From Streptomyces anulatus (GTDB lineage: Bacteria; Actinomycetota; Actinomycetes; Streptomycetales; Streptomycetaceae), in assembly GCF_000721175.1 (NCBI RefSeq), contig NZ_JOEZ01000030.1, positions 62,001 to 126,000 of the forward strand: a stretch of 64,000 nucleotides of DNA, written 5' to 3'. A program made the position numbers and the translations under genes. Each line of letters opens with the position of its first letter. The first letter of the stretch is position 1. This document shows, piece by piece, positions 35,895 to 52,640 of this stretch. Below the pieces are notes generated by a model. It saw only the letters and a program-made list of their open reading frames with translations, did no database searches and was not told the DNA's origin.

Positions 35895-35927
35895 TTATGC
35901 CTCCCGGTTCACCCAAGGAGGCATCCC

Positions 35928-37292
35928 GTGGCAGACCGCACACCCCCGCTCGGCGTCGACGAGCTCCGCTCACGTGTCGCGGACGGGTCGATAGACACCG
36001 TGGTGCTGGCCTTCCCGGACATGCAGGGCCGGCTTCAGGGGAAGCGGTTCGCGGCCGGGTTCTTCCTCGACGAGGTGCTGGAGCACGGTACCGAGGGCTG
36101 CAACTACCTCCTGGCCGTGGACACCGAGATGCGGACCGTCGACGGCTACGCGATGTCCTCGTGGGAGAACGGCTACGGCGACTTCGGCATGGTCCCGGAT
36201 GCCGCGACCCTGCGCCCCGTCCCCTGGCACGAGGGGACGGCTCTGCTGATCGCGGATCTCGCCTGGCACGACGGCAGTCCGGTGGTGGCCGCGCCGCGTC
36301 AGATCCTGCGCCGCCAGCTCGACCGGCTGGCGGAGCTCGGCTGCACCGCGCAGGTCGGCACGGAACTGGAGTTCATCGTCTTCCGGGACAGTTACGAGGA
36401 GGCCTGGGACCGCGACTACCGCGGGCTGACCCCGGCCAACCAGTACAACATCGACTACTCGATCCTCGGCACGGGGCGCATCGAGCCGCTGCTGCGCCGG
36501 ATCCGCAACGAGATGCAGGAGGCCGGGCTGACCGTCGAGTCCGCCAAGGGCGAGTGCAACCCCGGTCAGCACGAGATCGTCTTCCGCTACGACGAGGCGC
36601 TCACCACCTGCGACCAGCACGCCGTCTACAAGACGGGCGCCAAGGAGATCGCGGCCCAGGAGGGCGTCTCGCTGACCTTCATGGCCAAGTACGACGAGCG
36701 CGAGGGCAACTCCTGCCACATCCACCTCTCGTTGACCGACGAGGGGGGCGAGAACCTGATGGCGGGCGAGGGCCCGGACGGCATGTCCGAGCTGATGCGG
36801 CACTTCCTGGCCGGTCAGCTCGCCGCGCTGCGGGACTTCTCCCTCCTCTACGCGCCCACCATCAACTCCTACAAACGCTTCCAGCCAGGCTCCTTCGCTC
36901 CCACCGCCGTCGCCTGGGGCGTCGACAACCGCACCTGCGCCCTGCGGGTCGTCGGCCACGGGCGCTCGATGCGCTTCGAGAACCGGTTGCCCGGCGGGGA
37001 CGTCAACCCGCACCTGGCCGTCGCCGGTCTGGTCGCCGCCGGACTGTACGGGGTCGAGCACCGGCTGCCGCTGCCCGAGGCCTGTACGGGCAACGCGTAC
37101 ACCGGGGACTACGACCAGGTGCCGACGACGCTGCGCGAGGCGGCCGAGCTGTGGGAGGCCAGCCCCATCGCCAAGGAGGCCTTCGGCGAGGAGGTCGTCG
37201 CGCACTACCTGAACATGGCCCGAGTCGAACTGACCGCGTACGACTCCGCGGTGACCGACTGGGAGCTGCGCCGCTCCTTCGAACGCCTCTGA
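35928..37292 (+). CDS. glnA4: Glutamine synthetase-like gamma-glutamyl amine ligase (GlnA4-like)
   Basis: A 454-residue member of the glutamine synthetase fold. Active-site segments are VGTELEFIVF, SAKGECNPGQHEIVFRYDEA (metal and glutamate ligands), SCHIHLSL (ATP/metal His), NSYKRFQPGSFAPT and MRFENRLPGGDVNPHLAVAG. The sequence is of the type that joins glutamate to amines rather than to ammonia; in Streptomyces coelicolor GlnA4 glutamylates ethanolamine. The neighbours (permease, aldehyde dehydrogenase, C26 hydrolase) fit such a pathway. AAGGAGG precedes the GTG. Whether the substrate is ethanolamine or a polyamine cannot be settled by eye. Confidence 0.85.
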   Translation: MADRTPPLGVDELRSRVADGSIDTVVLAFPDMQGRLQGKRFAAGFFLDEVLEHGTEGCNYLLAVDTEMRTVDGYAMSSWENGYGDFGMVPDAATLRPVPWHEGTALLIADLAWHDGSPVVAAPRQILRRQLDRLAELGCTAQVGTELEFIVFRDSYEEAWDRDYRGLTPANQYNIDYSILGTGRIEPLLRRIRNEMQEAGLTVESAKGECNPGQHEIVFRYDEALTTCDQHAVYKTGAKEIAAQEGVSLTFMAKYDEREGNSCHIHLSLTDEGGENLMAGEGPDGMSELMRHFLAGQLAALRDFSLLYAPTINSYKRFQPGSFAPTAVAWGVDNRTCALRVVGHGRSMRFENRLPGGDVNPHLAVAGLVAAGLYGVEHRLPLPEACTGNAYTGDYDQVPTTLREAAELWEASPIAKEAFGEEVVAHYLNMARVELTAYDSAVTDWELRRSFERL

Positions 37293-37343
37293 CAGCCAGA
37301 ACACCTCCGCACCACCACCACCTTCCGTGATCGGGGTCCGTAC

Positions 37344-38726
37344 GTGTCACAACCCGCCCTGGACGTCCTGAACCCGGCGACCGCCGAGGTCGTCGCCACC
37401 GTGCCCGCCGCCTCCGCCGCCGATGTGGACGCCGCCGTCACCCGCGCCGCCGCGGCCCAGCGGCCCTGGGCGGCCGCCGCGCCCGCCGACCGGGCCCGTC
37501 TGCTGCGCCGCTTCGCCGTCGTCGTCGACGAACACATCGAGGAACTGGCCCGGTTGGAGGTCCGCGAGGCCGGCCACACCATCGGCAACGCCCGGTGGGA
37601 GGCGGGCAACGTACGCGATCTCCTCGACTACAGCGCGGGCGGGGCCGAACGGCTCCTGGGCCGGCAGATCCCGGTGGCGGGCGGCATCGACTTCACCATC
37701 CTGGAGCCGCTGGGCGTCGTCGGCGTCATCGCCCCGTGGAACTTCCCGATGCCGATCGCCGCCTGGGGTCTCGCCCCGGCCCTCGCGGCGGGCAACGCCG
37801 TCCTCCTCAAGCCCGCCGAGACGACCCCGCTGACCGCCCTCCGACTGGCCGAACTCGCCCTGCGGGCAGGCCTTCCCGACGGGCTGTTCCAGGTGCTGCC
37901 CGGCGAGGGGCCGGTGGCCGGAAGCGCCCTGGTCGAGCATCCGGGCGTCGCGAAGATCGTGTTCACCGGCTCCACCCGGACCGGCAAGCACATCATGACC
38001 CGCTGCGCCGAGCGCGTGAAGCGGCTCACCCTGGAGCTGGGTGGCAAGAGCCCCAACGTCGTCTTCGCCGACGCCGATGTGGAGGCCGCGGCGGCGGCCG
38101 CCCCGATGTCCTTCCTGGACAACGCCGGCCAGGACTGCTGTGCCCGCACCCGCATCCTGGTCGAGCGGTCCGTGTACGACCGCTTCCTCGACCTGCTCGT
38201 CCCGGCCGTGTCCGCCGTCGTGGTGGGCGACCCGAACGACGAGAAGACGCAGATGGGGCCGCTGATCTCGGCCGTCCAGCGGGACCGGGTCCGAGGGCTC
38301 GTCGACGGCGGCCGGGGAGCCGACGGTGTACGGACCATCCTCGGAACGGCCCCCGAGGGCCCCGGGTTCTGGTATCCGCCGACCGTCCTCACCGGGGTCT
38401 CGCCCGATGCGCCGGTGGCCGTGGAGGAGGTCTTCGGGCCGGTCGCGGTGGTCGTGCCGTTCGAGGACGAGGAGGACGCGCTGCGCCTCGCGAACGCCAC
38501 CGACTACGGGCTCGCCGGCTCGGTCTGGACCCGGGACGTCGGCCGCGCGCTGCGCCTCGGGCAGGGGCTGCGGGCGGGCAACCTCTCCGTCAACTCGCAT
38601 TCCAGCGTGCGCTATTCGACCCCCTTCGGCGGCTACAAGCAGTCGGGCCTGGGCCGCGAGCTCGGCCCGGACGCCCTGGCCGCCTTCACCGAGACCAAGA
38701 ACGTCTTCATCAGCACGGAGGCCTGA
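37344..38726 (+). CDS. NAD(P)-dependent aldehyde dehydrogenase
   Basis: A 460-residue enzyme. The nucleotide-binding [21 protein letters not shown] (catalytic Glu) and the catalytic cysteine in [15 protein letters not shown], with [13 protein letters not shown] and the C-terminal [15 protein letters not shown], are all present. It would oxidise the aldehyde formed from a gamma-glutamylated amine. It starts 51 bp after the glutamine synthetase-like gene and ends 5 bp before the SDR gene; the three probably form one operon. Confidence 0.93.
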
Positions 38727-39605: not shown

Positions 39606-40811
39606 TCAGCCCGGGGCCGCGGCCGGATCGCCCCGCAGACGTCGGGCCCGGAGCACCAGGAGCATCTCGAAGCGCTGGTCCGGTTCGTCGATGGCGTCGC
39701 CCCACAGCTCGCGGATCTGCCGCAGCCGGTAGCGGGCCGTCTGGGGGTGGATACCGAGGCGGGCGGCGACATCGGAGGCGCCGCCGGGGGTCTCGATCCA
39801 GGCGAGCAGCGTCTCCGCCATGCGCCGCGTCTGGGTCGGGCTGAGGCCGTCCAGCGGGGCGAGGCAACGGCGGGCTGCGGCGTCGATCAGCTCATGGGCG
39901 GGGAGCAGCAGCAGTTCCTCCGTCCGTTCTGTGCAGTACAGCACCTCGCCCTGCGGCAGCAGGCCCTTCTTGATCAACTGGACGGCGGTCTCCGCCCAGC
40001 GCAGCGAGGTCGCCGCCGCCGCCAGCGGGACCGCCGGGCCGATCGCCCCGGACCAGCCGGCCGTGGCTCGCCGCAGGATCTCCGCACGGCCCGCCGTGTC
40101 CGGATCCGGGATGACGATGCGCGGCTGCTCGCTCTCCATCTCCAGCAGGATGCCCTGCCCCACCGCGGGGGCCACGGCCTCGCGGGCCGGGCGCATGAGC
40201 ACGCCCACGGCGATCGTCTCCGGGAGCTCCCAGCCGATGCGGGCGGCCCGCTCGGCCAGGGTCATGGACACATCCCCGCGGTGTTCCACGAGGAGGAGAT
40301 CGATGAGCTGCCGCTGGAGGCGGAGCCGTTCACTGGCACGCCGGGCCGCCGCCTCGGCGTAGCCCCGTACCGACTGTTCCACGAGCCCGTCCAGATACTC
40401 GAATCCCGATTCGGCCAGCTCGTACATGGCGGGCGCGGGGATGTCGACCTGCTGGCCGATCTCGGCGAGCCTGCGCCAGGTGAGCCGGACCCCGAGGCGA
40501 TAGATGGCCTGGAGCGCGTCGAGGCTGCGGCCCTCGAGCCCCTCGCCCCGCCCGAACTCCTGGAACATCTCAGGCGGCACCCGTGGGTGGGCGCCGGCGG
40601 TGAGGTTGTGGACGAAGCCCTCGATGGCGCGGCGGATCCCGACGAGGGCCAGCGGCTCCCCGGACTCGTCCTCGACCAGGTGCAGATAGGGATATTCCTG
40701 GCGGATCTGGCAGAGGATCGTCTGGGCGAGCTCCGGGGCCTCGGACCGGGCGATGGCCTCGAAGCGATCGAGCTTCGACCGGGGGACGTCCTGCCAGGCG
40801 GGGCGCGTCAC
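39606..40811 (-). CDS. PucR-family transcriptional regulator
   Basis: A 401-residue regulator. The C-terminal helix-turn-helix of the CdaR/PucR type lies near residues 335-390 (LLAWIETPGGASDVAARLGI then HPQTARYRLRQIRELWG). The central GGDEF-like region has LAAAATSLRWAETAVQLI. The N-terminal half (RRAIEGFVHNLTAGAHPRVP) matches a domain common in actinobacterial PucR proteins. The GTG start overlaps the stop of the upstream 50-aa DUF2613 gene by GTGA, which fixes the start and implies coupled translation. The regulated genes are unknown; the adjacent amine-catabolic and envelope clusters are both candidates. Confidence 0.88.
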   Translation of the reverse strand: MTRPAWQDVPRSKLDRFEAIARSEAPELAQTILCQIRQEYPYLHLVEDESGEPLALVGIRRAIEGFVHNLTAGAHPRVPPEMFQEFGRGEGLEGRSLDALQAIYRLGVRLTWRRLAEIGQQVDIPAPAMYELAESGFEYLDGLVEQSVRGYAEAAARRASERLRLQRQLIDLLLVEHRGDVSMTLAERAARIGWELPETIAVGVLMRPAREAVAPAVGQGILLEMESEQPRIVIPDPDTAGRAEILRRATAGWSGAIGPAVPLAAAATSLRWAETAVQLIKKGLLPQGEVLYCTERTEELLLLPAHELIDAAARRCLAPLDGLSPTQTRRMAETLLAWIETPGGASDVAARLGIHPQTARYRLRQIRELWGDAIDEPDQRFEMLLVLRARRLRGDPAAAPG

Positions 40812-40960
40812 GGAGCCGCCGGTCCGGTGTCATAGCTGATCAAGGGCGTATTGGGCTGGTCGGGGGTGGCGTCGAGCAGTGCCACGACACCGACCGCCGC
40901 GCCAACGGCGAGCGTCGCGGCCACCAGGACGGTGACAGCGGCGGCGATGAGTCTGCGCAT
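40808..40960 (-). CDS. DUF2613-family 50-residue membrane peptide
   Basis: A short gene coding for 50 residues. It starts MRRLIAAAVTVLVAATLAV, one transmembrane helix reaching to about residue 29, followed by a short outside tail LLDATPDQPNTPLISYD. AAGGAG is 11 bases before the ATG. It matches the DUF2613 family, known in Streptomyces and mycobacteria but without function. The stop overlaps the PucR start (GTGA), so the peptide and regulator are made together. It is divergent from the DUF3068 gene. Confidence 0.8.
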   Translation of the reverse strand: MRRLIAAAVTVLVAATLAVGAAVGVVALLDATPDQPNTPLISYDTGPAAP

Positions 40961-41041: not shown

Positions 41042-41070
41042 TTGACATCCGTCAAGAGCGTGCTTACTGT
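41042..41070 (+). promoter_or_regulatory. Sigma-70-type promoter of the envelope gene cluster
   Basis: TTGACA (41042-41047), 17 bases, TACTGT (41065-41070), 75 bp before the DUF3068 start. The -35 is a perfect consensus and the -10 has the required TAnnnT, so constitutive housekeeping transcription is likely. Confidence 0.65.
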
Positions 41071-41145: not shown

Positions 41146-42129
41146 ATGCGCCACAACGCTTCACCCCTGTCGCTTGTCCTGCTGGGGGCGGGAGTCTTCC
41201 TGCTCGTCCTCGCGCCGCTGCTCGTCTGGTACGTCCAGCCGCATGCCAAGCGCACCCCCATCGACACCGACACCACCACCGTCTTCACCGGGACGGGCAG
41301 CTACTTCGACACGTCCGAGGTGGAGACGGTCGAGGGCAGAACGATCACGATCACCCGGCAGGTGCGCGGGGACGTGGCCGACAGCGAGAAGAGCGGCAAC
41401 GCCGTGTGGGACGTGTCCACGTCGGTCGACCACCAGGACACCCTGCCCGCCTCGGACCCGCGTGACGCCCTCCAGTGGACACTGGAGCGCTGGGTGACCG
41501 ACCGGGCCACCAACGAGCCGGTCCACTGCTGCGAGGAGACCCCGGCGTTCGACGGGGAGGCGTACCTGAAGTTCCCCTTCGACGTCGAGAAGCGTTCCTA
41601 CCGCTGGTGGGACAGCACGCTCGGCGGTGTCGTGCGGCTCTCGTACGCCGGTGAGCAGGAGATTCAGGGCTACTCCGGCCTTCTCTTCAAGGGCGAGGTG
41701 GAGCCCACCAAAACCGGGGTGCGCCAGGTGCCGGGGCTGCTCGTGGGGAAGAAGAAGACCCCCCAGGTGCTGGCCGAGGAGTGGTATTCCAACAGCGGCA
41801 TCGAGCTGGTCGTGGACCGGCGGACCGGCCGCATCATCAACGCGGCGATCGGCCCGAGGAAGACGCTGCGCGCCCCGGGCTCCGAGAAGGACGCCGTCGT
41901 GCTGCTGGAGAGCAAGCGGGTGGAGTTCACCGAGGAGACCCAGCTCAAGCAGGTCGAGCTCGCTTCGGCGGACAGCGACCGGCTGGCGATGCTCGGCACG
42001 ACCGCGCCGGCCGGGGCGGCCGGGCTGGGCGGCGTGCTCGCTCTCGTGGGTGTCGTCCTCGTCGTGCGGGGGCGCCGGACGGAGCCGGAAGCTCCGAATA
42101 CTCACATGAGGACGATTCCGCACACCTGA
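41146..42129 (+). CDS. DUF3068 (PorA-family) membrane-anchored protein
   Basis: A 327-residue protein. An N-terminal helix (LSLVLLGAGVFLLVLAPLLV) precedes a large outside domain with DTTTVFTGTGSYFD and RSYRWWDSTLGGVVRLSYAG, then a C-terminal helix (LGGVLALVGVVLVVRGRR). This two-anchor layout defines DUF3068. The domain has no known enzymatic role. It is the first gene of the envelope run and may shape or receive the surface product. The start ATG is 75 bp from a strong promoter. Confidence 0.85.
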   Translation: MRHNASPLSLVLLGAGVFLLVLAPLLVWYVQPHAKRTPIDTDTTTVFTGTGSYFDTSEVETVEGRTITITRQVRGDVADSEKSGNAVWDVSTSVDHQDTLPASDPRDALQWTLERWVTDRATNEPVHCCEETPAFDGEAYLKFPFDVEKRSYRWWDSTLGGVVRLSYAGEQEIQGYSGLLFKGEVEPTKTGVRQVPGLLVGKKKTPQVLAEEWYSNSGIELVVDRRTGRIINAAIGPRKTLRAPGSEKDAVVLLESKRVEFTEETQLKQVELASADSDRLAMLGTTAPAGAAGLGGVLALVGVVLVVRGRRTEPEAPNTHMRTIPHT

Positions 42130-42220
42130 GTTACCGACAAGTTGTTGCGCTGGTGAGTAGCCGGGCGCGTACCCGTGCCGAAAACTGTCTATCCCCACCA
42201 GAGCACGGCCCCCCGGTCTC

Positions 42221-42320
42221 GTCCCCGTCCATCCCTCTCAACTCTCCTCTTCCTCCCGCCTCACCCTCGCGATCCCTCGCCCCCTGTCACGTCCCCGTAC
42301 CGCACGGCCCTCGCCCCTCC
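42221..42320 (+). other. C-rich, G-poor untranslated region before the glycosyltransferase gene
   Basis: Within the 239-bp spacer 42130-42368 the plus strand is strongly C-rich and G-poor: I count 45 C and 9 G in the 80 bases 42221-42300. In such a GC-rich genome this skew resembles a Rho-utilisation region. It could allow Rho-dependent control of the glycosyltransferase operon. No gene lies in the spacer. Confidence 0.4.
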
Positions 42321-42368
42321 TGGGCCGCTTCCCCGATTCCCCGCACCCCGAGCCGAGTTGGAGCACCC

Positions 42369-43562
42369 ATGCCCCAGCACGTCCCTCCCCCACTGCTCGA
42401 CGCCGCCGCACGCCCGGGTCAGGGCCCGGCGTCCGCCCCGGTCCCCGCCACCCCGAGACGCATCGTCTTCCTCGCCCACCGCGACCTGGGCAATCCGGCC
42501 GCCGGCGGCTCCGAGCTGCTGGTCGACCAGCTCGCTCTGGGCCTCACCGAGCAGGGCCACGACGTCACGCTGCTGTGTGGCGGGCAGGCCGCCCGCCGGC
42601 CCTACCGGGTCGTCTCGGCGGGCAGCACGCTGGGGCACTACGTCGGCGCGCGGTCCGCGTTCGCCCGGCACATCGGGGCGTGCGACCTGCTCGTCGAGGT
42701 CTGCAACGGCATGCCGTACCTGGCGCCCCTGTGGCACCGCGGGCCAACGGTGTGCCTGGTCAACCACGTGCACACCGACCTGTGGGACATGCGCTTCCCG
42801 GCGCCGGTGGCCCGTGCCGGGCGCAAACTCGAACACTGGGCCCTGTCCCGGGCCTACCGCGACCACCTGATGATCGCGGTGTCCCCGTCCACGGCGGGCG
42901 CCCTGCGCGACCTCGGCGTGCCCGACCGGCGGATCCGGGTGGTGCACAACGGCGTCCAGGAGCCGAGCCCGCAGAGCGAGAGGTCCCAGGAGCCGCTGTT
43001 CGTGGCGCTGGGCCGGCTCGTCGACTACAAGCGCATCGACCTGCTGCTCCAGCTCTGGGAGCGGGTCCGGCCGGTCACCGGCGGGCGCCTCGTCATCGTC
43101 GGTGACGGCCCCGAGCGGGCCCGGCTGGAACAACTCGCCGGTCCCGGTGTGGAGTTCGCCGGCCATGTGACCGAGGCGGAGAAGCACCGGCTGCTCTGTG
43201 CCGCCTGGATGCTGCTGCACCCGGCGGCCGTCGAGGGGTGGGGGCTCGTGGTCACGGAGGCCGCGGCCCGTTCCACCCCGACCCTGGGCTTCGACGTGCC
43301 GGGGCTGCGCGACTCCGTCGAGGACGGCGTCACCGGGATCCTCGCCCCGGGCGCGTCCTCCTTCGCCGCCGCCTGGTGCGCACTGGCGCTGGACGACGAG
43401 CGGCGCGAGGCGATGGGCAAGGCGGCCCGCGAGCGCGCCGCGGACTACCGGTGGACCGCCAGTGTGCGCCGGTTCGCGGCGGTGGCCGCCGAGGCGGCGG
43501 CCGGTTCCACGGCTCCGACGGCGGACGGCCCGGACGCCCCGACGATCGGCGCGAGCGCGTGA
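42369..43562 (+). CDS. GT4-family glycosyltransferase
   Basis: A 397-residue GT-B enzyme. The N-terminal acceptor domain begins RRIVFLAHRDLGNPAAGGSE and contains HGHDVTLLCGG-like (QGHDVTLLCGG); the C-terminal donor domain has ALGRLVDYKRIDLLLQLW, GDGPERARLEQL and the conserved EGWGLVVTEAAARSTP. It transfers a sugar from a nucleotide donor in the cytoplasm. Its stop overlaps the next gene by GTGA. With the AftD-like protein downstream it probably builds part of a cell-surface glycan; donor and acceptor are unknown. Confidence 0.9.
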   Translation: MPQHVPPPLLDAAARPGQGPASAPVPATPRRIVFLAHRDLGNPAAGGSELLVDQLALGLTEQGHDVTLLCGGQAARRPYRVVSAGSTLGHYVGARSAFARHIGACDLLVEVCNGMPYLAPLWHRGPTVCLVNHVHTDLWDMRFPAPVARAGRKLEHWALSRAYRDHLMIAVSPSTAGALRDLGVPDRRIRVVHNGVQEPSPQSERSQEPLFVALGRLVDYKRIDLLLQLWERVRPVTGGRLVIVGDGPERARLEQLAGPGVEFAGHVTEAEKHRLLCAAWMLLHPAAVEGWGLVVTEAAARSTPTLGFDVPGLRDSVEDGVTGILAPGASSFAAAWCALALDDERREAMGKAARERAADYRWTASVRRFAAVAAEAAAGSTAPTADGPDAPTIGASA

Positions 43563-44278
43563 AGGACCCTTCGTTCCGGCGGTCGGCCGCCCTCTTCCGC
43601 GCCTTCCTGCGCGAACAGGGCGACCCCGCCACGGCATACACCCTGCTGGCCCGTGACGCGGCCGACCAGGTCGAACGGCACGGTCCGCTCCGGGACAAGG
43701 TCGTCGTCGACATCGGCGGCGGCGACGGCTACTTCACCCGGGAGTTCCGGCGGCGCGGTGCGCAGAGCTACCTCTTCGAACCGGATCCGGCGGAGATCGG
43801 CCCCGGGCAGCGCGCGGACACCGTCGTCGCCGACGGCTATCTGCTGCCGCTCGCCGACGGCGCGGCCGACGTCTGCTTCTCCTCCAACGTGCTGGAGCAC
43901 GTCGCCGATCCGCACACCTTCCTCAGCGAGATGGCACGGGTGACCCGCCCCGGCGGTCTCATCTACGTCTCGTTCACCAACTGGCTCTCTCCGTGGGGCG
44001 GCCACGAGTGGGCGCCCTGGCACTACCTCGGCGCCGAACGCGCCCGGGGCCGCTACGAGCGGCGCACCGGCGGCCCGGCCAAGCACCGGCTCGGCGAGAA
44101 CCTCTTCAAGATCGGCGTCGGCGAGACCCTGGACCACGTCCGGAGCCGCTCCGACGTAACCATCGTCTCAGCACGCTCGCGCTACTGGCCCGTCCTTCCC
44201 CAGCTTGTGCCGCGGATCCCCGTACTCCGGGAGTTCGCCACCTGGAACCTCCTCCTCATCCTCCGGCGGTGTTCATGA
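43559..44278 (+). CDS. Class I SAM-dependent methyltransferase
   Basis: A 239-residue methyltransferase. Motif I is VVVDIGGGDGYFTREF, the acidic end of strand 2 is YLFEPDP, and the post-motif region FSSNVLEHVADPHTFLSEMA with RPGGLIYVSF is typical of the Methyltransf_11 group. The GTG start overlaps the upstream stop (GTGA) and its own stop overlaps the AftD-like start (ATGA). The substrate is probably a sugar or lipid-linked intermediate of this cluster. Confidence 0.9.
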   Translation: MKDPSFRRSAALFRAFLREQGDPATAYTLLARDAADQVERHGPLRDKVVVDIGGGDGYFTREFRRRGAQSYLFEPDPAEIGPGQRADTVVADGYLLPLADGAADVCFSSNVLEHVADPHTFLSEMARVTRPGGLIYVSFTNWLSPWGGHEWAPWHYLGAERARGRYERRTGGPAKHRLGENLFKIGVGETLDHVRSRSDVTIVSARSRYWPVLPQLVPRIPVLREFATWNLLLILRRCS

Positions 44279-47200
44279 CCAGCGCTGTCCACCCAACCCG
44301 GTCCACGGCCCCGGACGGCGCGGGTCCCGTGCCGCCCGGCTCTGCCGAGGGCCCGCCCCCGCCCCGGTCGCGGCGTTGGCTGCTGGGCTTCTGGGCCGCC
44401 GTGTTCGCGGCGTTCCTCGCGGTGTCGCCCGGGCGGATGACGTTCGACACGAAGCTCGGCGTCGTCGTGGATCCCTGGCGTTTCCTGGGTGATCTGGGCG
44501 AGCTGTGGCACAGCCGGGCCGGGTTCGGCGGGATCGCCGACCAGTACGTGGGCTACGCCATCCCGATGCTGCCGTACTACGGCGCCGCCGACCTGCTGCA
44601 TGTGCCGGTCTGGCTCGCGGAGCGGCTGTGGCTGTCGCTGATCGTGGCGACCGCCTTCTGGGGTGCGCTGCGGCTGGCGGAGCGGCTGCGCGTGGGTTCC
44701 CCGGCCACCCGGCTGCTGGGCGCGGTGGTGTACGCGCTGTGGCCGACGTACACGATCGTCGTGGGCTCGACCTCGGCGGCGGCCCTGCCGGGCGCCCTGC
44801 TGCCGTGGGTGCTGCTGCCCCTGACGGACCCGCGGCTCACACCGCGGATCGCCGCGGCCCGGTCCGCGCTGCTGATCCCTCTGATGGGCGGCGTCAACGC
44901 CGCCTCCACGCTGGCCTCGCTGCTGCCGGTGGGGCTGTATCTGCTGTCCCGGCCCGGCGGCCCGCGCAAGCGCGCGCTGCTGGCCTGGTGGATCCCGGGC
45001 GTGATCCTGGCGACCGCCTGGTGGATCGTGCCACTGCTGCTCCTCGGCACCTTCGGCGAGAACTTCATGCCGTACGTGGAGTCCTCGTACACCACCACCA
45101 CGACCATGTCGGCGACCGAGGTGCTGCGCGGCGGTGGGAACTGGGTCGGCTATCTGAACTTCGGCGAGGCCTGGCTGCCCGCCGGCTGGACCGTCGCCAC
45201 CGCGACCGTCACCATCCTGGGCTCGGCGCTCGCCGCCGCCCTGGGTCTGGCAGGGCTGGCACGGCGTGATCTGCCCGAGCGCCGCTGGCTGGTGCTGACC
45301 GTCCTGAGCGTCGCGCTCATCACGCTCGCCGGCTACGGCGGCGCGCTGGGCGGGCTGTTCCACGGGACGGTGCAGGACTGGCTGGACGGCTGGCTGGTGC
45401 CGTTCCGGAACATCTACAAGTTCCAGACGGGTCTGGCGCTGGCGCTGGCCCTGGGGCTCGCGCACCTCACCTCGGTGGCGTCCCTGGCCGCCGCCGCGCG
45501 GAGCGGCGGCAACCCGGTGCGCGCCCGCCGGCTCGCCCCGGTGGTCGCTGCCGCGATCGTGCTGCCGGGTCTCGCCTGGCCGTACCTCAACGGGTCGATC
45601 CTGCAGACGGGTTCGTTCCAGCAGCTGCCCAAGTACTGGGACGCGACCGGGAGCTGGCTCAAGGACAACTCGGCGAACGACCGTGCCCTGGTGGTCCCCG
45701 CGACCGCGCACGGCATCTACACCTGGGGCTCCCCCATCGACCAGCCGCTGGACGTCCTGGCGAACTCGCCCTGGGCTCAAAGGGATTACGTGCCGTTCGG
45801 CACGCCGGGCAACCGGCGGGCGATGGACGCCGTCGAGCAGGCGCTGACCTCCGGCGGCCAGGTTCCGGGGCTGAGCGAGTACCTGAACCGGGCCGGGCTC
45901 CACTATGTGGTGGTCCGCAACGACCTGGATCCCGACCAGTTGGGGTACGTCCCGACGACCACGGTGAAGCGCACGCTGGAGGCCTCCGGCTACCGGCGCG
46001 TGACCGGGTTCGGTCCGGTGATGACCGGCGGCCGGATCGCGGCGGACACCCCCGTACAGGTCGAGGGCCTCTATCCGCGGCAGCGGGCCGTGGAGATCTA
46101 CGAGCCGCCCGCCGGGACGGAGCGTCCGGGCCGGGCGGGTACGGCCCCGGTGGCCTCGACGGCCGTCGTGAGCGGCGGGCCCGAGTCGCTGCTGCCGCTG
46201 TCGGCGAGCGGCGCACTGGACGGCCGGCCGGCCGTGCTGGCCGGTGACGCGCACCCGGGTCTGGGACGGCCGTCGCTGTACGCGGCGGGCGACGGGCTGC
46301 GGCGCGCCGACACCCGGTTCGGGCTGGTGAACTCCAACACCTCGTACACGTACACCGCGGACGAACGCAACGCCGCGGAGGCGGCGCAGGATCCGGGCAG
46401 GAGCCCCCGGCAGATCCTGCCGACGTCCGGTGCGAAGCACCAGACGACCGCCGTGCTGCGGGGCGCGAAGAAGGTCAGTGCCTCGTCCGTGGGGAACTGG
46501 CTGTTCCATCTGCCGCAGTACGACCCGGTCAACGCGTTCGACGGCAATCCGGACACCGGCTGGGCGGAAGGGTCCCCGGGATCGCCCGAGAACGAGTGGG
46601 TGCGGATCGACTTCACCTCCCCGACCGACCTGCCGGGCTCGCTCCAGGTGACGCCGCTGCCCAGCGCGAACGTGCGCGCCGCACCGACGGTCGTCCGGGT
46701 CGAGACCGACCGGGGCTTCAAGGACAGCCCGCTGAAGCCGGACGGATCGGCGCAGACGGTGGCCGCGCCCGCCGGGCAGGCGGCCTGGCTGAAGGTGACG
46801 ATCCTGGAGTCCCAGCAGGGGCGTCCCGGGCTCACCGGCGCCGGGTTCACCGACATCGCGATCCCCGGGGTGCAGGTGACCCGGATGCTGGAGCTGCCCT
46901 CCGACGCGCCGCGTGAGGGCGCGGACTCCACCATCTACTCGCTGCGGCGGGGCAGTGACCCGGGCGGTCTGTCGTCGGTGGCGGCCGAGGTCGGCCTGCA
47001 CCGGCAGTTCACCGCCCAGGAGGCGGGCACGTACAAGGTGTCCGCGAGTGCTGTGCCGGTGCCCGGGGACGACCTGGACAAGCTGCTGTTCGAGCTGACG
47101 GGCGAGCGGGACAAGATCGAGGTGCGTGCCGACTCCACGGCACGTCTGGGCACCAATCTGAGTCCGCGCAATCTGACCGACGGTGATCTGACCACGGCGT

Positions 47201-48654
47201 GGATCGCGGGCGAACGCCCCGTACTGCATCTGTCGTGGCCGGAGAAGAGGGAGGTCGGCGAGATCGTCTTCGCGGCGGCCGGTGGTCTCTCCACCCGCCC
47301 CGAGCAGGTGCAGATCAGCTCGCCCGACGGTACGGCGGTGGCCGCCGTGGACGAGAACGGCATGGCCCGCTTCTCGCCGATCAGGACCGACCGGATGGAC
47401 ATCACCATCTCGCGGCAGGCGCCGCTGACCGTCCACAACCCGGTCGCCGACGACCAGTTGCAGCTGCCGGTCGGCCTGAGCGAGGTCTACATCCCGGCCC
47501 TGGAGGAGTACCGCTCGCCGCAGCCGAAGCCGGACAAGACCTTCAGCCTGGCCTGCGGCAAGGGCCCGGTCCTGTCCGTCGGCGGTACGTTCCTGGAGAC
47601 CCGGGCCGAGGGCCGGGTGCGGGACCTGACCCAGCGCCGGCCCATCGAGGTGACGCCGTGCACGAAGGACGGCTCGGTGGAGCTGGCCGCCTCGTCCACC
47701 ACCGTCGAGGCGGGGGACGCGGGACCGCTCGCCATCACCGACGTCACGCTGAGCAACGGCACCTCCGAGGCCGGGGCGAGCACGCCGCGCTCGGTGGACG
47801 TCGAGCAGGGCGACGGCGACCGGCGCACGATCGCCGTCGGCGCGGGCGAGGCCTCCTACCTCCAGATCCACGAGAACCACAACGCGGGCTGGAAGGCCAC
47901 CCTGGACGGCGAGGAGCTGACGCCGCTGCGGATCGACGGCTGGCAGCAGGCCTGGCTGGTCCCGGAGGGCGAAGGCGGCAAGGTCGCCCTGGAGTACGAG
48001 CCGGCCCGGATCTACCAGGTGGGTCTGATCGGGGCGGGCGCCCTGCTCCTGGTGCTCGCCGGCCTCGCCTTCGGGCGCCGCCGGAAAGCCGAGCCGTACG
48101 CGGCCGAGGAGCAGCCCGTTCCGCCGGGACCGGGCCTGATCCTGGGCACGGTCGCCCTCACCCTGGTGGGTGTGGTGATCGCGGGGCCGCTCGCCCTGGC
48201 GGTTCCCCTCCTCGCCGTACTCGCCCACTTCCGGCCGCGGTTGCTCTCGCCGGTGGCGTTCGCGGCGATGGCCGCCGCGGGTGTCGTCGCGGCGGTGGGC
48301 ACCGGGGACACCACGGCGGCGGACGAGGGCGCGTTCGGCGCGACGGCCCAGTTCCTGGCCCTGGTCGGCCTGTTCGCGGCCCTGGTCACGGTCGGGCGCG
48401 GGCCGCTCGGCAGGCGGGCCGCCGGTGGCCCGGTCGCGGCGGGCGACGGGGCGCCCACGGTCCCGGCGCAGGCCGTCTCCCCCTCCGGCCGGACACTGTC
48501 CACCGACCCGAAGCGGCCGCAGGGAACTCCACCGCCCGCTCCCGGAGCCGGACACGGATCCGACGCGGGCGACGACCCCGGCCACGGTGGTGACGGTCCG
48601 ACGCGGCAACTGGGCGTTCAGCGCCCGCCGTCCCGGCCCGGAGGGAGCACCTGA
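44275..48654 (+). CDS. AftD-like alpha-(1->3)-arabinofuranosyltransferase family protein
   Basis: A 1,459-residue GT-C membrane protein. The N-terminal part (WLLGFWAAVFAAFLAVSPG then TFDTKLGVVVDPW, about ten more helices to residue ~450) matches the DUF3367/AftD catalytic region. The middle is extracellular with galactose-binding-like (F5/8 C) modules: FDGNPDTGWAEG near residue 755 and LTDGDLTTAWIAG near 966. C-terminal helices lie near 1245-1265 and 1285-1340. In mycobacteria AftD adds arabinose branches to cell-wall arabinan using a decaprenyl-linked donor. Streptomyces has no mycolyl-arabinogalactan, so this protein must build another surface glycan. It is coupled to both neighbours. Confidence 0.85.
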   Translation: MTSAVHPTRSTAPDGAGPVPPGSAEGPPPPRSRRWLLGFWAAVFAAFLAVSPGRMTFDTKLGVVVDPWRFLGDLGELWHSRAGFGGIADQYVGYAIPMLPYYGAADLLHVPVWLAERLWLSLIVATAFWGALRLAERLRVGSPATRLLGAVVYALWPTYTIVVGSTSAAALPGALLPWVLLPLTDPRLTPRIAAARSALLIPLMGGVNAASTLASLLPVGLYLLSRPGGPRKRALLAWWIPGVILATAWWIVPLLLLGTFGENFMPYVESSYTTTTTMSATEVLRGGGNWVGYLNFGEAWLPAGWTVATATVTILGSALAAALGLAGLARRDLPERRWLVLTVLSVALITLAGYGGALGGLFHGTVQDWLDGWLVPFRNIYKFQTGLALALALGLAHLTSVASLAAAARSGGNPVRARRLAPVVAAAIVLPGLAWPYLNGSILQTGSFQQLPKYWDATGSWLKDNSANDRALVVPATAHGIYTWGSPIDQPLDVLANSPWAQRDYVPFGTPGNRRAMDAVEQALTSGGQVPGLSEYLNRAGLHYVVVRNDLDPDQLGYVPTTTVKRTLEASGYRRVTGFGPVMTGGRIAADTPVQVEGLYPRQRAVEIYEPPAGTERPGRAGTAPVASTAVVSGGPESLLPLSASGALDGRPAVLAGDAHPGLGRPSLYAAGDGLRRADTRFGLVNSNTSYTYTADERNAAEAAQDPGRSPRQILPTSGAKHQTTAVLRGAKKVSASSVGNWLFHLPQYDPVNAFDGNPDTGWAEGSPGSPENEWVRIDFTSPTDLPGSLQVTPLPSANVRAAPTVVRVETDRGFKDSPLKPDGSAQTVAAPAGQAAWLKVTILESQQGRPGLTGAGFTDIAIPGVQVTRMLELPSDAPREGADSTIYSLRRGSDPGGLSSVAAEVGLHRQFTAQEAGTYKVSASAVPVPGDDLDKLLFELTGERDKIEVRADSTARLGTNLSPRNLTDGDLTTAWIAGERPVLHLSWPEKREVGEIVFAAAGGLSTRPEQVQISSPDGTAVAAVDENGMARFSPIRTDRMDITISRQAPLTVHNPVADDQLQLPVGLSEVYIPALEEYRSPQPKPDKTFSLACGKGPVLSVGGTFLETRAEGRVRDLTQRRPIEVTPCTKDGSVELAASSTTVEAGDAGPLAITDVTLSNGTSEAGASTPRSVDVEQGDGDRRTIAVGAGEASYLQIHENHNAGWKATLDGEELTPLRIDGWQQAWLVPEGEGGKVALEYEPARIYQVGLIGAGALLLVLAGLAFGRRRKAEPYAAEEQPVPPGPGLILGTVALTLVGVVIAGPLALAVPLLAVLAHFRPRLLSPVAFAAMAAAGVVAAVGTGDTTAADEGAFGATAQFLALVGLFAALVTVGRGPLGRRAAGGPVAAGDGAPTVPAQAVSPSGRTLSTDPKRPQGTPPPAPGAGHGSDAGDDPGHGGDGPTRQLGVQRPPSRPGGST

Positions 48655-49982
48655 TGGTGACCACGCAGCAATCGCGGGCGCGGGGCGACGGGCCCCGGCC
48701 CGGGACCCCGGACCGGGTGCCGTTCCCGGTGGTCGACGAGGTGGCCCGGCACTGCGAGCAGGGCGCCGAGCCGAACACGGTGCACATCGAGATCCATCTG
48801 CCCGGCCGGGTGGACGAGGGGCGGCTGCGCTCCGCGTTCACCGAGGCGCTGGCCCGGCACCCCCGGGCGCTGATGCGGGAGCGCCCCCGGGGCCCGTTCG
48901 CCCGGCGCTACGAGTGGGAGCTGACCGCCGGCGCCGACGCGGATCCGGTCTCCTTCCCGCCGTCCGGGCCCGGGGCGCTCGACCGGGCCCGGGCGCGGGC
49001 GCTGGACCAGGCCCCGCCGCTGACGGCATCGCCGCCGCTGCGGCTGGAGGTGGTCGAGGAGCCGGGGCGCGAGGGGTGTGTGCTGGTGTTCGCCGTGCAC
49101 CACACCGCCCTCGACGGACCGGCGTGCCTGCGGCTGGCGGCGACGGCCGCCGAGATCTACGGCGCGCACCGCACCCCGCCACCGCCCGCCCCGGCGCGCC
49201 CGGCGTCCGAGCCGCTCGTCGGGGAGTCCCCGGCGTCGCCCCTGGCCCGGCCCGCCCGGATCGCGGCGGGCGCGCCGGGACCGTCCCCCGTACCGGGCAA
49301 CGCGATGCTGCTGGTCGAACTGCCGGTCCCCCGGCGGGAGTCCGGCGCCCCGTACACGGTGAACGACCAGCTGATGGTGGCCACCGCGCTCACGGTGGCC
49401 GACTGGAACCGGGCGCAGGGCGGGCCGGGGGCCGACCGCCGGCCGCTGCGGATCACCATGCCGGTCGACGACCGCAGCCGGGGGCCCGAGATGCCGATCG
49501 GGAACGGCACCCGGCTGGTGGAGGTCGGTTTCGCCGCCCCGGAGCTGGCGCCCGGGGCGGATGTCGCCGCCCTGCTCCGGGCGACCGCCGAGCGGACCCG
49601 GGCGCTCAAGGCGCGCCCCCGGCCCCCGCTGGGCCGCTCGGCTTCCCTGCTGACCGCGCCGCTGCTGCCGGTGGCCGCCCGCGCCGCGTTCACCCGGGGG
49701 CTGAGGGTGCTGGCGGGTCCGTGGACCTCGACGACGCTGCTGAGCAACATCGGCCGGGTGCCGTACCCGTTGGACTTCGGGGAGGCGGGCCGGGCGAAGG
49801 CCGTGTGGTTCTCCGCGCCCGCCCGGATGCCCCGGGGGCTGACTTTCACCACGGCGTCCACGGGCGGTCGGCTGCATCTGGCGCTGCGCTGGTCGCGCAC
49901 CCTGCTCGGGGACGAGGACGGCGTACGCCTGCGCGAGATGTTCACCAGCCACCTGGCCTCTACGTCCTCGGAGACCGTATGA
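48654..49982 (+). CDS. Condensation/acyltransferase-domain protein
   Basis: A 442-residue protein of the chloramphenicol acetyltransferase-like superfamily. The catalytic HHxxxDG is HHTALDG at residues 149-155. The second half has ITMPVDDRSRGPEMPIGNGT and TLLSNIGRVPYPLDFG, as in condensation, PapA and wax-ester-synthase-like enzymes. It probably esterifies the glycan or its lipid carrier with an acyl group. The ATG overlaps the AftD stop by one base, with GGAGGGAG upstream. No carrier protein or NRPS module is near, so a free acyl-CoA donor is more likely. Confidence 0.82.
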   Translation: MVTTQQSRARGDGPRPGTPDRVPFPVVDEVARHCEQGAEPNTVHIEIHLPGRVDEGRLRSAFTEALARHPRALMRERPRGPFARRYEWELTAGADADPVSFPPSGPGALDRARARALDQAPPLTASPPLRLEVVEEPGREGCVLVFAVHHTALDGPACLRLAATAAEIYGAHRTPPPPAPARPASEPLVGESPASPLARPARIAAGAPGPSPVPGNAMLLVELPVPRRESGAPYTVNDQLMVATALTVADWNRAQGGPGADRRPLRITMPVDDRSRGPEMPIGNGTRLVEVGFAAPELAPGADVAALLRATAERTRALKARPRPPLGRSASLLTAPLLPVAARAAFTRGLRVLAGPWTSTTLLSNIGRVPYPLDFGEAGRAKAVWFSAPARMPRGLTFTTASTGGRLHLALRWSRTLLGDEDGVRLREMFTSHLASTSSETV

Positions 49983-50704
49983 CCAGCACCGCCTCTCCTC
50001 CGCCCGGGCTGCGGGACTTCTACGAGAACCCGGCCGTCCCCGTGGCGTCGGGCGACGGGCGCAGCAGACGGCAGGCGCGGCTCCTCGCCGACGCGCTGGA
50101 CGCGCCGGGTCAGGTGATCCTCGACATCGGGTGCGGCGACGGCACGGCTGCGGCCACGGCGGCCCCGATCCTCGCCGGGCACCGGCTGATCGGTGTCGAC
50201 TGGTCGCAGGACGCGCTGCGCAGGGCCCGGCCCCGGATGGGCCTCGTGGTGCGCGGCGAGTTGGAGCACGGCGGGCTGCCGCTGGCCGACGGGTGCGCGG
50301 ACGCGGTGCTGTTCAGCGAGATCCTGGAGCATCTGGTCGACCCGGACCAGGCGCTGGACGAGCTGCGGCGCGTCCTGCGGCCCGGCGGCCACCTGATGCT
50401 GTCCACCCCGAACCTGGCGGCCTGGTACAACCGGGCGCTCCTGCTCGCCGGGGTGCAGCCGGTGTTCTCGGAGGTCAGCCTGCGCGGGATCCACGGCCGC
50501 CCCGGCTCGGAGGTGGTCGGGCATCTGCGGCTGTACACGGCCCGTGCGCTGCGCTCGTTCCTGACGGCGTCCGGCTTCACCGATGTGACGATCAAGGGCG
50601 CCCCCTTCCACGGGGTGCCGCGTCCGCTGCGGCTGCTGGACCGGGCGGCGTGCGCGGTGCCCGGGGCGTCCTCCATCCTGCTGGCCCACGCGCGGCGGAG
50701 GTAG
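49979..50704 (+). CDS. Class I SAM-dependent methyltransferase, second in the cluster
   Basis: A 241-residue methyltransferase. Motif I is VILDIGCGDGTAAATA, with HRLIGVDWS after strand 2 and FSEILEHLVDPDQALDELRR in the post-motif; RPGGHLMLSTPN follows. The start overlaps the acyltransferase stop by ATGA. It is only distantly similar to the first methyltransferase of the cluster, so the two probably act on different positions. Confidence 0.9.
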   Translation: MTSTASPPPGLRDFYENPAVPVASGDGRSRRQARLLADALDAPGQVILDIGCGDGTAAATAAPILAGHRLIGVDWSQDALRRARPRMGLVVRGELEHGGLPLADGCADAVLFSEILEHLVDPDQALDELRRVLRPGGHLMLSTPNLAAWYNRALLLAGVQPVFSEVSLRGIHGRPGSEVVGHLRLYTARALRSFLTASGFTDVTIKGAPFHGVPRPLRLLDRAACAVPGASSILLAHARRR

Positions 50705-50708
50705 CGCG

Positions 50709-51602
50709 ATGTGGTGGGGTGTCGGCGCGGCGCTGGTCGCCAACGCGCTGTACAGCGTGGGGTTCGTGGTGGAGAAGCGGGCCCTGGGCTCGCTGCCCGC
50801 GCTCTCCGCCGGCCGGCCGCTGCACGTCATCCGGGTGCTGCTGACGAGCCCGCTGTGGATCGTCGGCGCGCTGGCGCTGGCGGCCGGGTTCGGGGCCCAG
50901 CTGGTCGTCTACCGGGCTCTGCCGATCGCGGCGGCGCAGGGCATCTTCGTCTCCGGTCTGGTGCTGCTCCTGCTGCTGTCCTCGGCCGTGCTCGGCGAGG
51001 AGTCGACGGGCCGCGAACGCTATGCGCTGGGCGGGGTGTTGGTCGCCCTGCTGATGGTCGTCGCCTCCGTGCGCGAGGGCGAGGACGTGGTGAGCGGCGG
51101 CGCCCCGTGGATGCTGGTGCTCCTGGTCTGTCTGCCGGCGCTGGCGGCGGGCGTCTGGCTGTACGTACGGGTCGAGAGCCGGGCGGCCAAACGGCACCGG
51201 GTCCCGACCAGCGGCATCGGGTACGGGGTGGCGGTGGGCCTGCTCTACGGGGTCAGCTCGCTGGCCATCAAGGGCACGTCCAGCCGTCTGAACAGCACGG
51301 ATCCGAGCGAGGCCGCGCTGTCGCTGCTGGGGTCCCCGTATCCGTATCTGCTGCTGTTCACCGCGGCGGCCGGTCTGGTGATGTCGCAGGCGGCGCTGCA
51401 GCGCTGCCGGGCGTCCCTCATCGTGCCGGTGTGCACCACGGTGACCTGTCTGTTCACCGCGGTCCTCGGGACGCTCGCGTTCGGCGAGACGCTGCCCGAG
51501 GATCCGCTGCTGCTGGCCCTGCGGGTGGGCGGCACGGCGCTCGCCCTGTCCGTCCTGCTGGCCATGCCGCGTCACGATCCGCCGCCCGCCGCGCCGTCCT
51601 GA
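50709..51602 (+). CDS. DMT-superfamily transporter (possible lipid-linked sugar flippase)
   Basis: A 297-residue membrane protein with about ten helices. It starts VGAALVANALYSVGFVVEKR and has ALPIAAAQGIFVSGLVLLLL; the internal repeat has VGLLYGVSSLAIKGTSSR. It resembles small DMT proteins, some of which move lipid-linked sugars. It is four bases after the methyltransferase gene. In this context, translocating a polyprenyl-linked sugar donor for the AftD-like enzyme is a reasonable guess. Confidence 0.8.
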   Translation: MWWGVGAALVANALYSVGFVVEKRALGSLPALSAGRPLHVIRVLLTSPLWIVGALALAAGFGAQLVVYRALPIAAAQGIFVSGLVLLLLLSSAVLGEESTGRERYALGGVLVALLMVVASVREGEDVVSGGAPWMLVLLVCLPALAAGVWLYVRVESRAAKRHRVPTSGIGYGVAVGLLYGVSSLAIKGTSSRLNSTDPSEAALSLLGSPYPYLLLFTAAAGLVMSQAALQRCRASLIVPVCTTVTCLFTAVLGTLAFGETLPEDPLLLALRVGGTALALSVLLAMPRHDPPPAAPS

Positions 51603-51654
51603 CCGCCGCATCCGATCCGCCGTCCGGTCCACCTGAGTTGAGGGAGCTTTACCG

Positions 51655-51873
51655 ATGAACCCCGACGACCCGCTGCTCGCCATCCTGGCCTGCCCGCTCG
51701 ACAAGGGACCGCTGTCCCTGCTGCCCGAGGAGGAGGCGCTGTACAACCCCCGGCTGCGCCTGAGTTACCCGATCGTGGACGGCATCCCGCAGCTGCTGCC
51801 CTCGTCGGGCCGGAAGGTCTCGGCTGACGACCACGAGCGCCTGCTCACCCGGCTCAAGGCTTCGGCCACGTGA
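51655..51873 (+). CDS. Trm112-like small protein (UPF0434 family)
   Basis: A 72-residue protein of the Trm112p family: LLAILACPLDKGPLSLL, then LRLSYPIVDGIPQLLP. Of the four zinc cysteines of eukaryotic Trm112 only one is present here, so it may not bind zinc. In other organisms Trm112 stabilises and activates methyltransferases. GGGAG lies upstream of the ATG. Its stop overlaps the start of the FkbM methyltransferase (GTGA), suggesting it is a partner for one or more methyltransferases of this cluster. Confidence 0.85.
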   Translation: MNPDDPLLAILACPLDKGPLSLLPEEEALYNPRLRLSYPIVDGIPQLLPSSGRKVSADDHERLLTRLKASAT

Positions 51874-52640
51874 CCACGTTCGCCGCGGCGGTGGCGTCCC
51901 GGCTGCCCAGCAGCCTCGTCGGCTCCGTGGCCGTCGCCCTCTATCCGCGCTTCGAGCCCGAGCTCCGGCGGCTCGCCGACTTCTGCCCGCCGGACGGCGT
52001 CGCCCTCGACATCGGGGGCTGGTACGGCCCCTGGTCGCGGCGGCTGGCCGCCCGCTGCGCCGAGGTGGTCACCATCGAGCCGGTGCCGCATCTGGCGGAG
52101 CATCTGCGCCGGACGCTGCCGTCGAACGCCCGGGTGGTCCAGGGCGCGGCGACCGACCGGGAGGGCACGGCGCAGCTGTGGTTCCCGGAGGGCGACCGGG
52201 GCGACCGGGGGGTGTCGTCGCTGGCCCGCCGCGAGATCCACGCGCACTGCCTGGAGGTGCCGTCGATCACCGTCGACAGTCTGGGGCTGCGCGGGGTCGG
52301 CTTCGTGAAGATGGATGTCGACGGCGGCGAGCGGGCGGCGCTGCTCGGCGCGGCGGAGCTGCTGAGCAAGGACCGGCCGGCCCTGCTCATCGAGCTGGAG
52401 AGCCGGCTCGGCCCGATCGCACCGGCGATCGACGTGCTGACCGGACAGGGCTACGCGGGCTGGCTCCTGGCGGGCCGGCGCTGGATCGCGCTCGACGGGT
52501 TCGACCTGGTGGCCCACCAGGCGCGGACCGAGCACCTGGTGCACCAGGGTCTGCTGCGCCGGGCCCTCGTGCCGCACCGCGACCGGTACATCAACTCGGT
52601 GCTCTTCCTGCCGGACGGGCGGACGCCGGGCACGGTCTGA
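51870..52640 (+). CDS. FkbM-family methyltransferase
   Basis: A 256-residue methyltransferase. Motif I is VALDIGGWYGPWSRRL, followed by VVTIEPVPHLAEHLRR and the FkbM hallmark VGFVKMDVDGGERAALLGAA with PALLIELE. FkbM enzymes O-methylate sugars or polyketides. It is translationally coupled to the Trm112-like gene and ends the cluster. A weak stem GGTGCGG/CCGCACC follows at 52738-52761 in the 179-bp spacer before the convergent gene. Confidence 0.9.
   Translation: MTTFAAAVASRLPSSLVGSVAVALYPRFEPELRRLADFCPPDGVALDIGGWYGPWSRRLAARCAEVVTIEPVPHLAEHLRRTLPSNARVVQGAATDREGTAQLWFPEGDRGDRGVSSLARREIHAHCLEVPSITVDSLGLRGVGFVKMDVDGGERAALLGAAELLSKDRPALLIELESRLGPIAPAIDVLTGQGYAGWLLAGRRWIALDGFDLVAHQARTEHLVHQGLLRRALVPHRDRYINSVLFLPDGRTPGTV

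What the first reader, a model, noticed from the sequence alone, without database searches (positions are those of the whole stretch)
41146..52640. Nine-gene envelope glycoconjugate cluster with an AftD-like enzyme
DUF3068 protein, GT4, methyltransferase, AftD-like arabinofuranosyltransferase, HHxxxDG acyltransferase, methyltransferase, DMT transporter, Trm112-like protein and FkbM methyltransferase are co-directional and mostly overlapping. It combines glycan extension outside the membrane with acylation and up to three methylations, in an organism type without mycolyl-arabinogalactan. The product is not obvious from known pathways.
Basis: partly seen in the sequence, partly recalled or inferred. 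Interest (0 to 1): 0.7.

Follow-up and report, generated by a model that had tools for sequence, protein, structure and literature searches.

The report
Streptomyces cousin of mycobacterial envelope locus
A conserved nine-gene cluster in Streptomyces is built around four genes that mycobacteria and corynebacteria use to make and carry envelope glycolipids, although Streptomyces is not known to have the wall those genes serve, so it offers a harmless place to learn what the shared machinery does.

The parts
41146..42129 (+). g1: LmcA/PgfA-type lipid carrier (DUF3068, Pfam PorA), two membrane helices and an outer beta-barrel domain
42369..43562 (+). g2: GT4 glycosyltransferase, no membrane segment
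   Evidence: PF00534, PF13692; 31-55% to GT4 genes beside AftD in other families; start chosen
43559..44278 (+). g3: MtrP-type class I methyltransferase
   Evidence: PF08241; 44-48% to the methyltransferase beside AftD in 9 of 20 fetched stretches
44275..48654 (+). g4: AftD-family GT-C glycosyltransferase with carbohydrate-binding modules
   Evidence: PF11847 739 bits, PF24607; 469 bits to AftD structure 6w98; Asp58 in the SPG..DTK stretch
48654..49982 (+). g5: soluble HxxxDG acyltransferase, condensation/BAHD fold
   Evidence: His150, Asp154, Gly155 invariant in 51 proteins; model pLDDT 74.8 matches condensation and BAHD structures
49979..50704 (+). g6: second class I methyltransferase
   Evidence: PF08241 72 bits; 54 of 54 loci
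50709..51602 (+). g7: DMT-like membrane protein, possible flippase
   Evidence: NF038012 31.9 bits, below cut-off; seven or more hydrophobic segments; kept in rearranged loci
51655..51873 (+). g8: Trm112/YcaR-like small protein, possible methyltransferase partner
   Evidence: PF03966 51.8 bits; 54 of 54 loci
51870..52640 (+). g9: FkbM methyltransferase, optional member
   Evidence: TIGR01444 73.2 bits; 46 of 54 loci
41042..41070 (+). conserved promoter with inverted repeat TTGAC..GTCAA over the -35 region
   Evidence: 67 of 67 Streptomyces loci with a g1 ORF carry TTGACA-N3/4-GTCAA..TAnnnT 81-297 bases before g1; 0 of 3228 random 399-base windows; TTGACAN{2,3}CGTCAAG once in the own genome
39606..40811 (-). 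divergent PucR-type regulator, candidate regulator of the cluster
   Evidence: HTH_30 58.6 bits; 54 of 54 loci
40808..40960 (-). small membrane ORF (50 aa) overlapping the start of the regulator gene
   Evidence: minus-strand tblastn hit in 70 of 80 loci, some weak; these 70 are the loci that hold the PucR gene

Best explanation
The cluster is the Streptomycetaceae form of an old actinobacterial envelope module whose core is an LmcA/PgfA-type lipid carrier, a GT4 glycosyltransferase, an MtrP-type methyltransferase and an AftD-family GT-C enzyme. Proposed mechanism. (1) Inside, GT4 puts a sugar on a lipid; g5 adds an acyl group from a CoA or carrier-protein thioester; g3, g6 and often g9 methylate sugar or acyl hydroxyls, with g8 assisting a methyltransferase. 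(2) g7 flips the glycolipid, or a polyprenyl-phosphate sugar, across the membrane. (3) Outside, AftD adds sugar from a polyprenyl-phosphate donor, guided by its binding modules. (4) g1 shields the acyl chains and moves the product to its site in the envelope. Shown: families, conserved linkage, LmcA fold, a core shared with mycobacterial-type loci, no Emb, a conserved promoter element. Inferred: order of steps, sidedness, substrates, and that all nine act on one product. The sugar that AftD transfers is open.
Against: No expression, mutant or chemical data. g1 is missing from 3 of 54 loci and a second carrier gene exists elsewhere. MptA/B is lacking in 29 of 77 and DPPR synthase in 37 of 77 AftD-positive genomes, so no known donor or backbone route fits all. 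f72 has GT4, g3 and AftD without a carrier gene, and outside the class only 4 of 41 AftD-positive genomes have one. g7 is not a confirmed DMT member. PgfA and LmcA themselves are not interchangeable (PMC9678360 passage), so family does not fix the cargo.
Confidence: 0.55

Rival explanations
1. The cluster makes an arabinan-bearing lipoglycan (a LAM-like molecule) in Streptomyces, AftD using decaprenyl-phosphate-arabinose as in mycobacteria.
For: AftD family match 739 bits. DPPR synthase and DprE1 over cut-off in some AftD-positive Streptomyces, for example G123 with UbiA, DprE1 and DprE2 together. The own genome has a DprE1/DprE2-like pair (491 bits, cut-off 500). MptA/B-like enzyme more frequent with AftD: 48 of 77 against 61 of 220.
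Against: No Emb in 23 of 23 non-f3 genomes. Own genome has no DPPR synthase match; 35 of 66 AftD-positive Streptomyces lack one over cut-off, six of them with weaker hits; AftD and DPPR synthase do not clearly co-occur, 40 of 77 against 86 of 220, p 0.06 without correction for kinship. f5 and f7 AftD carriers have no DprE1 over cut-off, 0 of 6. Streptomyces is not known to make LM/LAM (PMC5882110 passage).
Confidence: 0.2
2. It is a specialised-metabolite cluster: a diffusible acylated and methylated glycolipid rather than an envelope component.
For: Patchy: AftD in 77 of 297 Streptomycetaceae genomes; many tailoring enzymes and a dedicated promoter; relatives of g5 are named condensation proteins.
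Against: Its core is shared with envelope loci in other families, and an LmcA-type carrier with AftD points to the envelope. In three chromosome-scale records it lies at 2.45 of 8.27, 3.05 of 9.34 and 3.41 of 10.31 Mb, not at the ends. No synthase for a metabolite core among the nine.
Confidence: 0.12
3. Two neighbouring operons with separate jobs: an old core (g1-g4) and an unrelated g5-g9 set, joined only by position.
For: g5, g7, g8 and g9 gave no tblastn hit, and g6 only the cross-hits of related methyltransferases, in the stretches from outside Streptomycetaceae. g9 is missing from 8 of 54 loci.
Against: g4/g5 overlap. In rearranged loci g7 lies next to AftD while g5 and g6 follow g1 and g3 (L151, L155), so the sets are mixed, not separable blocks.
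Confidence: 0.08

Closest known systems
Corynebacterineae tmaT/mtrP/lmcA locus (C. glutamicum cg3161-cg3168, M. smegmatis around MSMEG_0317)
   Same: LmcA/PgfA, GT4, MtrP-type methyltransferase and AftD together (PMC7775120 legend passage)
   Different: No MmpA in any of 12 Streptomyces searched and no AT3 acyltransferase among the nine; instead g5-g9; different gene order
LmcA/PgfA (MSMEG_0317, NCgl2760), DUF3068 lipid carrier
   Different: No mycolate cargo expected in Streptomyces (general knowledge); second copy elsewhere in the genome; 22% identity over the aligned core
AftD, mycobacterial arabinofuranosyltransferase (6w98, 6wbx)
   Same: Whole-length match, GT-C domain and binding modules
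   Different: Separate clade on a long stem; Glu for Asp at the putative catalytic site in 14 of 80 and 16 other fixed differences; donor route often missing
MtrP methyltransferase
   Same: 44-48% to the methyltransferase at that place in mycobacterial-type and other loci
   Different: Its published role concerns trehalose mycolates, which Streptomyces is not known to make

Membership tests
LmcA/PgfA (DUF3068) | PF11271 and NF053601 over cut-off | tested here: met
   253 bits (cut-off 29.5) and 319.5 bits (cut-off 160)
LmcA/PgfA (DUF3068) | LmcA beta-barrel fold | tested here: met
LmcA/PgfA (DUF3068) | Binds an envelope lipid | not testable with these tools
   Needs lipidomics of purified protein
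AftD | PF11847 GT-C domain and CBM_AftD | tested here: met
   739 and 59.7 bits
AftD | Acidic catalytic residue near the first membrane helix | tested here: met
   Window Asp58; 64 Asp, 14 Glu, 1 Arg, 1 gap in 80 Streptomyces rows; 12 Asp in 12 others. That this residue is the catalytic one is inferred from the GT-C pattern (PMC12041299 passage)
AftD | Transfers arabinofuranose from decaprenyl-phosphate-arabinose | tested here: inconclusive
   Own genome has DprE1/E2-like genes but no DPPR synthase match; activity not testable here
tmaT/mtrP/lmcA locus | GT4, MtrP-type methyltransferase, carrier and AftD linked | tested here: met
   Window g1-g4; same quartet in f3, f5 and f7 stretches
tmaT/mtrP/lmcA locus | MmpA present | tested here: not met
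   0 of 12 Streptomyces, own genome included; 14 of 29 genomes over cut-off, none of them Streptomyces
tmaT/mtrP/lmcA locus | TmaT-type AT3 acyltransferase in the locus | tested here: not met
   Not among the nine genes; elsewhere in the genome not searched
LM/LAM biosynthesis | Emb arabinosyltransferase | tested here: not met
   PF04602: 0 of 12 Streptomyces, own genome included
LM/LAM biosynthesis | MptA/B-type alpha-1,6-mannosyltransferase | tested here: inconclusive
   Own genome 215 bits (cut-off 40; best f3 hits 422-523); 8 of 8 AftD-positive Streptomyces in the first sample, but 29 of 77 in the larger sample lack it

The most novel reading that the evidence does not exclude
The LmcA/GT4/MtrP/AftD quartet is an ancestral actinobacterial machine for building and carrying an acylated glycolipid, older than mycolic acids and arabinogalactan. 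In Streptomyces, and in the unnamed f5 and f7 families, AftD transfers a sugar other than arabinose from decaprenyl-phosphate-arabinose. Mycobacteria and corynebacteria inherited the machine and bent it to mycolate and LAM traffic; MmpA, described as a transport factor, is a GT-C relative of AftD.
Probability: 0.35. Interest if true: 0.8.

Novelty: new variant of a known kind. Interest (0 to 1): 0.6.

Why it matters
Genes of the mycobacterial locus are reported as essential and have uncertain roles (Rv0226c; Rv0227c and MSMEG_0317), and the passages read here treat the locus as a Corynebacterineae trait tied to mycolates or LAM. Finding its core in Streptomyces, without Emb enzymes and often without the arabinose-donor entry enzyme, separates the shared function from the mycomembrane and gives a harmless host in which the genes may be removable. 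It also questions naming every AftD-family protein an arabinosyltransferase.

Tried and rejected
Recent transfer from mycobacteria: rejected. The 13 Streptomyces AftD rows in the tree form one clade on a long stem outside the f3/f5/f7 group; the place of f72 and the splits inside the f3/f5/f7 group are not firm.

Strict dependence on the arabinose-donor route or on an MptA/B mannan backbone: neither held (37 of 77 AftD-positive Streptomycetaceae lack DPPR synthase and 29 of 77 lack MptA/B over cut-off). The first small sample for MptA/B (8 of 8 AftD-positive against 1 of 4 AftD-negative Streptomyces) looked stronger than the large one. Fisher values ignore kinship. The number of Streptomyces among the 297 is not known to me, so the genus-level values are for assumed sizes and are not used.

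Replacement of the missing DPPR synthase by the gene divergent from DprE1 in the own genome: rejected, it is a BrkB-type membrane protein, and G383 has the same arrangement.

Exact TTGAC-N4-GTCAA as the shared operator: only 1 of 43 loci looked at has the four-base spacer of the window; the others have five. With either spacer the element is in 67 of 67. It is also before g1 in L125, L156 and L158, but no such site was found at the carrier gene of the rearranged loci. The motif was defined on these sequences.

MmpA and AftD: HHalign probability 99.1, score 162 over 461 columns, six against seventeen sequences; controls AT3, AftB, Emb, AftA, DMT and an MptB-like protein gave probabilities of 0.6 or less and scores of 24 or less. 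Four of these six controls were single sequences, so they are weak controls.

Weak or empty: no Rfam hit and no tRNA in the window; g7 against solved structures gave nothing useful; the literature search on bacterial Trm112 gave nothing useful in its listing. Not searched: TmaT-like genes elsewhere in the genome, mycolate genes, Ppm1.

That this locus is not described in Streptomyces rests, in an open-access library only; S. rimosus aftD is named once, as a recombining gene (PMC6437091 passage). The Actinoplanes AT3 paper (PMC11064477 passages) concerns a stand-alone gene.
Full report
Observation. The nine genes are present as described, + strand, window 41146-52640. Families are given. Five of eight junctions overlap by 1-4 bases.

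Host. AftD (g4) was used to scan the named genome collection: 245 relatives, of which the best 80 were kept, all from Streptomyces; the nearest include S. fimicarius, S. anulatus and S. griseus at 91-93% identity. The window lies in an 8.4-Mb, 166-contig assembly.

Conservation. Of the 80 loci, 54 hold at least 9 kb before AftD and 10.5 kb from its start onward. In all 54 the genes present are collinear: g2, g3, g4, g6, g7, g8 in 54, g5 in 53, g1 in 51, g9 in 46; the divergent PucR gene is in 54, and the acyl-CoA dehydrogenase downstream of the window's cluster was found in none. In a sample of 297 Streptomycetaceae genomes AftD is over cut-off in 77, of which 66 are Streptomyces and 11 belong to five other genera. 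Eight AftD stretches from this sample were fetched. L156 (another genus) and L158 (Streptomyces) keep all nine families in the same order. L151, L152, L154 and L155, of three other genera, hold AftD, DMT-like, GT4, carrier and g3 in another arrangement, with g5 in L151, L152 and L155, g6 in L151 and L155 and g8 in L151 as far as the stretches reach. L153 and L157 are cut by contig ends.

Relation to the mycobacterial locus. In a 396-genome phylum sample PF11847 is found in 77 genomes (75 over cut-off) and PF11271 in 65 (63 over cut-off). In the class 34 genomes have AftD over cut-off (one more, G375, is below it); in 33 the carrier lies within 20 kb on the same contig, and the exception, G303, has the genes on different contigs. 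In all 8 AftD-positive Streptomyces of that sample the distance is 2.2-2.6 kb. Outside the class the link is weak: 4 of 41 genomes with AftD over cut-off have PF11271 over cut-off at all. tblastn with the window proteins against twenty fetched stretches finds GT4 (31-55%) and the g3 methyltransferase (44-48%) beside AftD in f3, f5, f7 and f72. Exceptions: f7 L120 has only weak methyltransferase hits, f22 L130 and f69 L126 have GT4 without g3, f25 L127 has GT4 with a weak methyltransferase hit, and in L114 and L129 neither fell inside the stretch. f72 (G342) has no PF11271 match. All-against-all clustering of ORFs puts an AT3-type ORF in ten and a MmpA-type ORF in eight of the twenty; family scans confirm AT3 in L113 and L117 and MmpA and PgfA in L113. 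The order in L113, AftD - three genes - AT3 - PgfA - MmpA - GT4 - methyltransferase, is that of C. glutamicum cg3161-cg3168 apart from intervening genes (PMC7775120, figure-legend passage). f3 is taken as Mycobacteriaceae from Emb, DprE1 and a 1887-bit match of L113 AftD to the solved AftD structures; the other families are unnamed. Published roles: NCgl2760/LmcA for full-length LM/LAM; TmaT, MtrP and MmpA for acetyl-trehalose-corynomycolate and its transport (PMC8698533 passages). PgfA is reported to bind trehalose monomycolate and to work with MmpL3 in M. smegmatis, and PgfA and LmcA are not interchangeable (PMC9678360 passages). The LmcA structure and its CD36 likeness are published (PMC8972800 passages). 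The passages describe the locus as conserved in Corynebacterineae.

The AftD enzyme. A tree of 28 GT-C domains puts the 13 Streptomyces rows in one fully supported clade with a long stem, outside f3, f5 and f7. Of 80 Streptomyces rows aligned (78 of the 80 collection loci gave a long ORF; the window and L125 were added), 64 have Asp and 14 Glu at the putative catalytic position; 16 other positions are fixed differently from twelve sequences of other families. f5 and f7 also lack the donor route yet share the mycobacterial state at these positions, so the differences are not a marker of the donor.

Donor and backbone. Emb (PF04602): 6 of 6 f3 genomes, 0 of 23 others. DprE1 over cut-off in 16 of 29 genomes, including 5 of 8 AftD-positive and 3 of 4 AftD-negative Streptomyces; the own genome scores 491 against 500; G323 and G395 have only background hits; f5 and f7 have none of 6. 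DPPR synthase over cut-off in 15 of 29; none in the own genome. In 297 Streptomycetaceae: MptA/B in 48 of 77 AftD-positive against 61 of 220 AftD-negative; DPPR synthase in 40 of 77 against 86 of 220. Of the 35 AftD-positive Streptomyces without DPPR synthase over cut-off, six have weaker hits (E 1e-46 to 1e-54). So neither route is a condition for keeping the cluster, and a mannan backbone fits somewhat better than arabinose.

Acylation. The HxxxDG residues of g5 are invariant in 51 proteins; its model, of middling confidence (pLDDT 74.8), matches condensation and BAHD folds. AT3-type ORFs stand by AftD in ten stretches, and in L119 AftD, AT3 and SGNH domains lie in one open frame (the true start of that ORF is uncertain). 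Acylation thus accompanies AftD through unlike enzymes, the best hint that the product is an acylated glycan. That g5 takes the place of TmaT is inference.

Regulation. TTGACA-N3/4-GTCAA with a -10-like TAnnnT lies 81-297 bases before g1 in 67 of 67 Streptomyces loci with a g1 ORF and in 0 of 3228 random windows of the same loci. In the own genome TTGACAN{2,3}CGTCAAG occurs once, here. The motif was defined on these sequences, so conservation, not the match, is the evidence. Binding of the PucR protein is a guess.

Verdict. A real, conserved cluster, best read as the Streptomycetaceae variant of a known actinobacterial envelope locus. The steps inside, flip, outside and carry are inferred from family, fold and hydropathy. 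Product, donor and acceptor are unknown.

Noticed in passing
L113:15335-17029 (+) and related MmpA ORFs against AftD: The MmpA family, described as a trehalose-lipid transport factor without relatives, aligns with the AftD GT-C domain over 461 columns (HHalign 99.1). MmpA may be a GT-C-type enzyme or a relic of one.
   Followed up: partly
L119:8243-16324 (+): In an unnamed family (f72) the AftD GT-C domain, its binding module, an AT3 acyltransferase and an SGNH domain lie in one open frame.
   Followed up: partly
L124:14578-15543 (-): Second PgfA-type gene of the genome, beside rpsA, coaE and a methyltransferase; it is the only carrier copy in six AftD-negative Streptomyces of the twenty sampled, one of which (G172) has a further divergent copy.
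   Followed up: partly
window 40808-40960 (-): A 50-residue membrane ORF overlaps the start of the divergent PucR gene and recurs in the 70 loci that hold that gene.
   Followed up: partly
L161:8853-12706: Some Streptomyces, such as G123, carry UbiA-type DPPR synthase, DprE1 and DprE2 side by side, so an arabinose-donor route exists there, with or without AftD.
   Followed up: partly
window 30569-31831 and 35580-38726: Two TerD-domain genes in tandem, then a glutamine-synthetase-domain gene and an aldehyde dehydrogenase upstream of the cluster.
   Followed up: no
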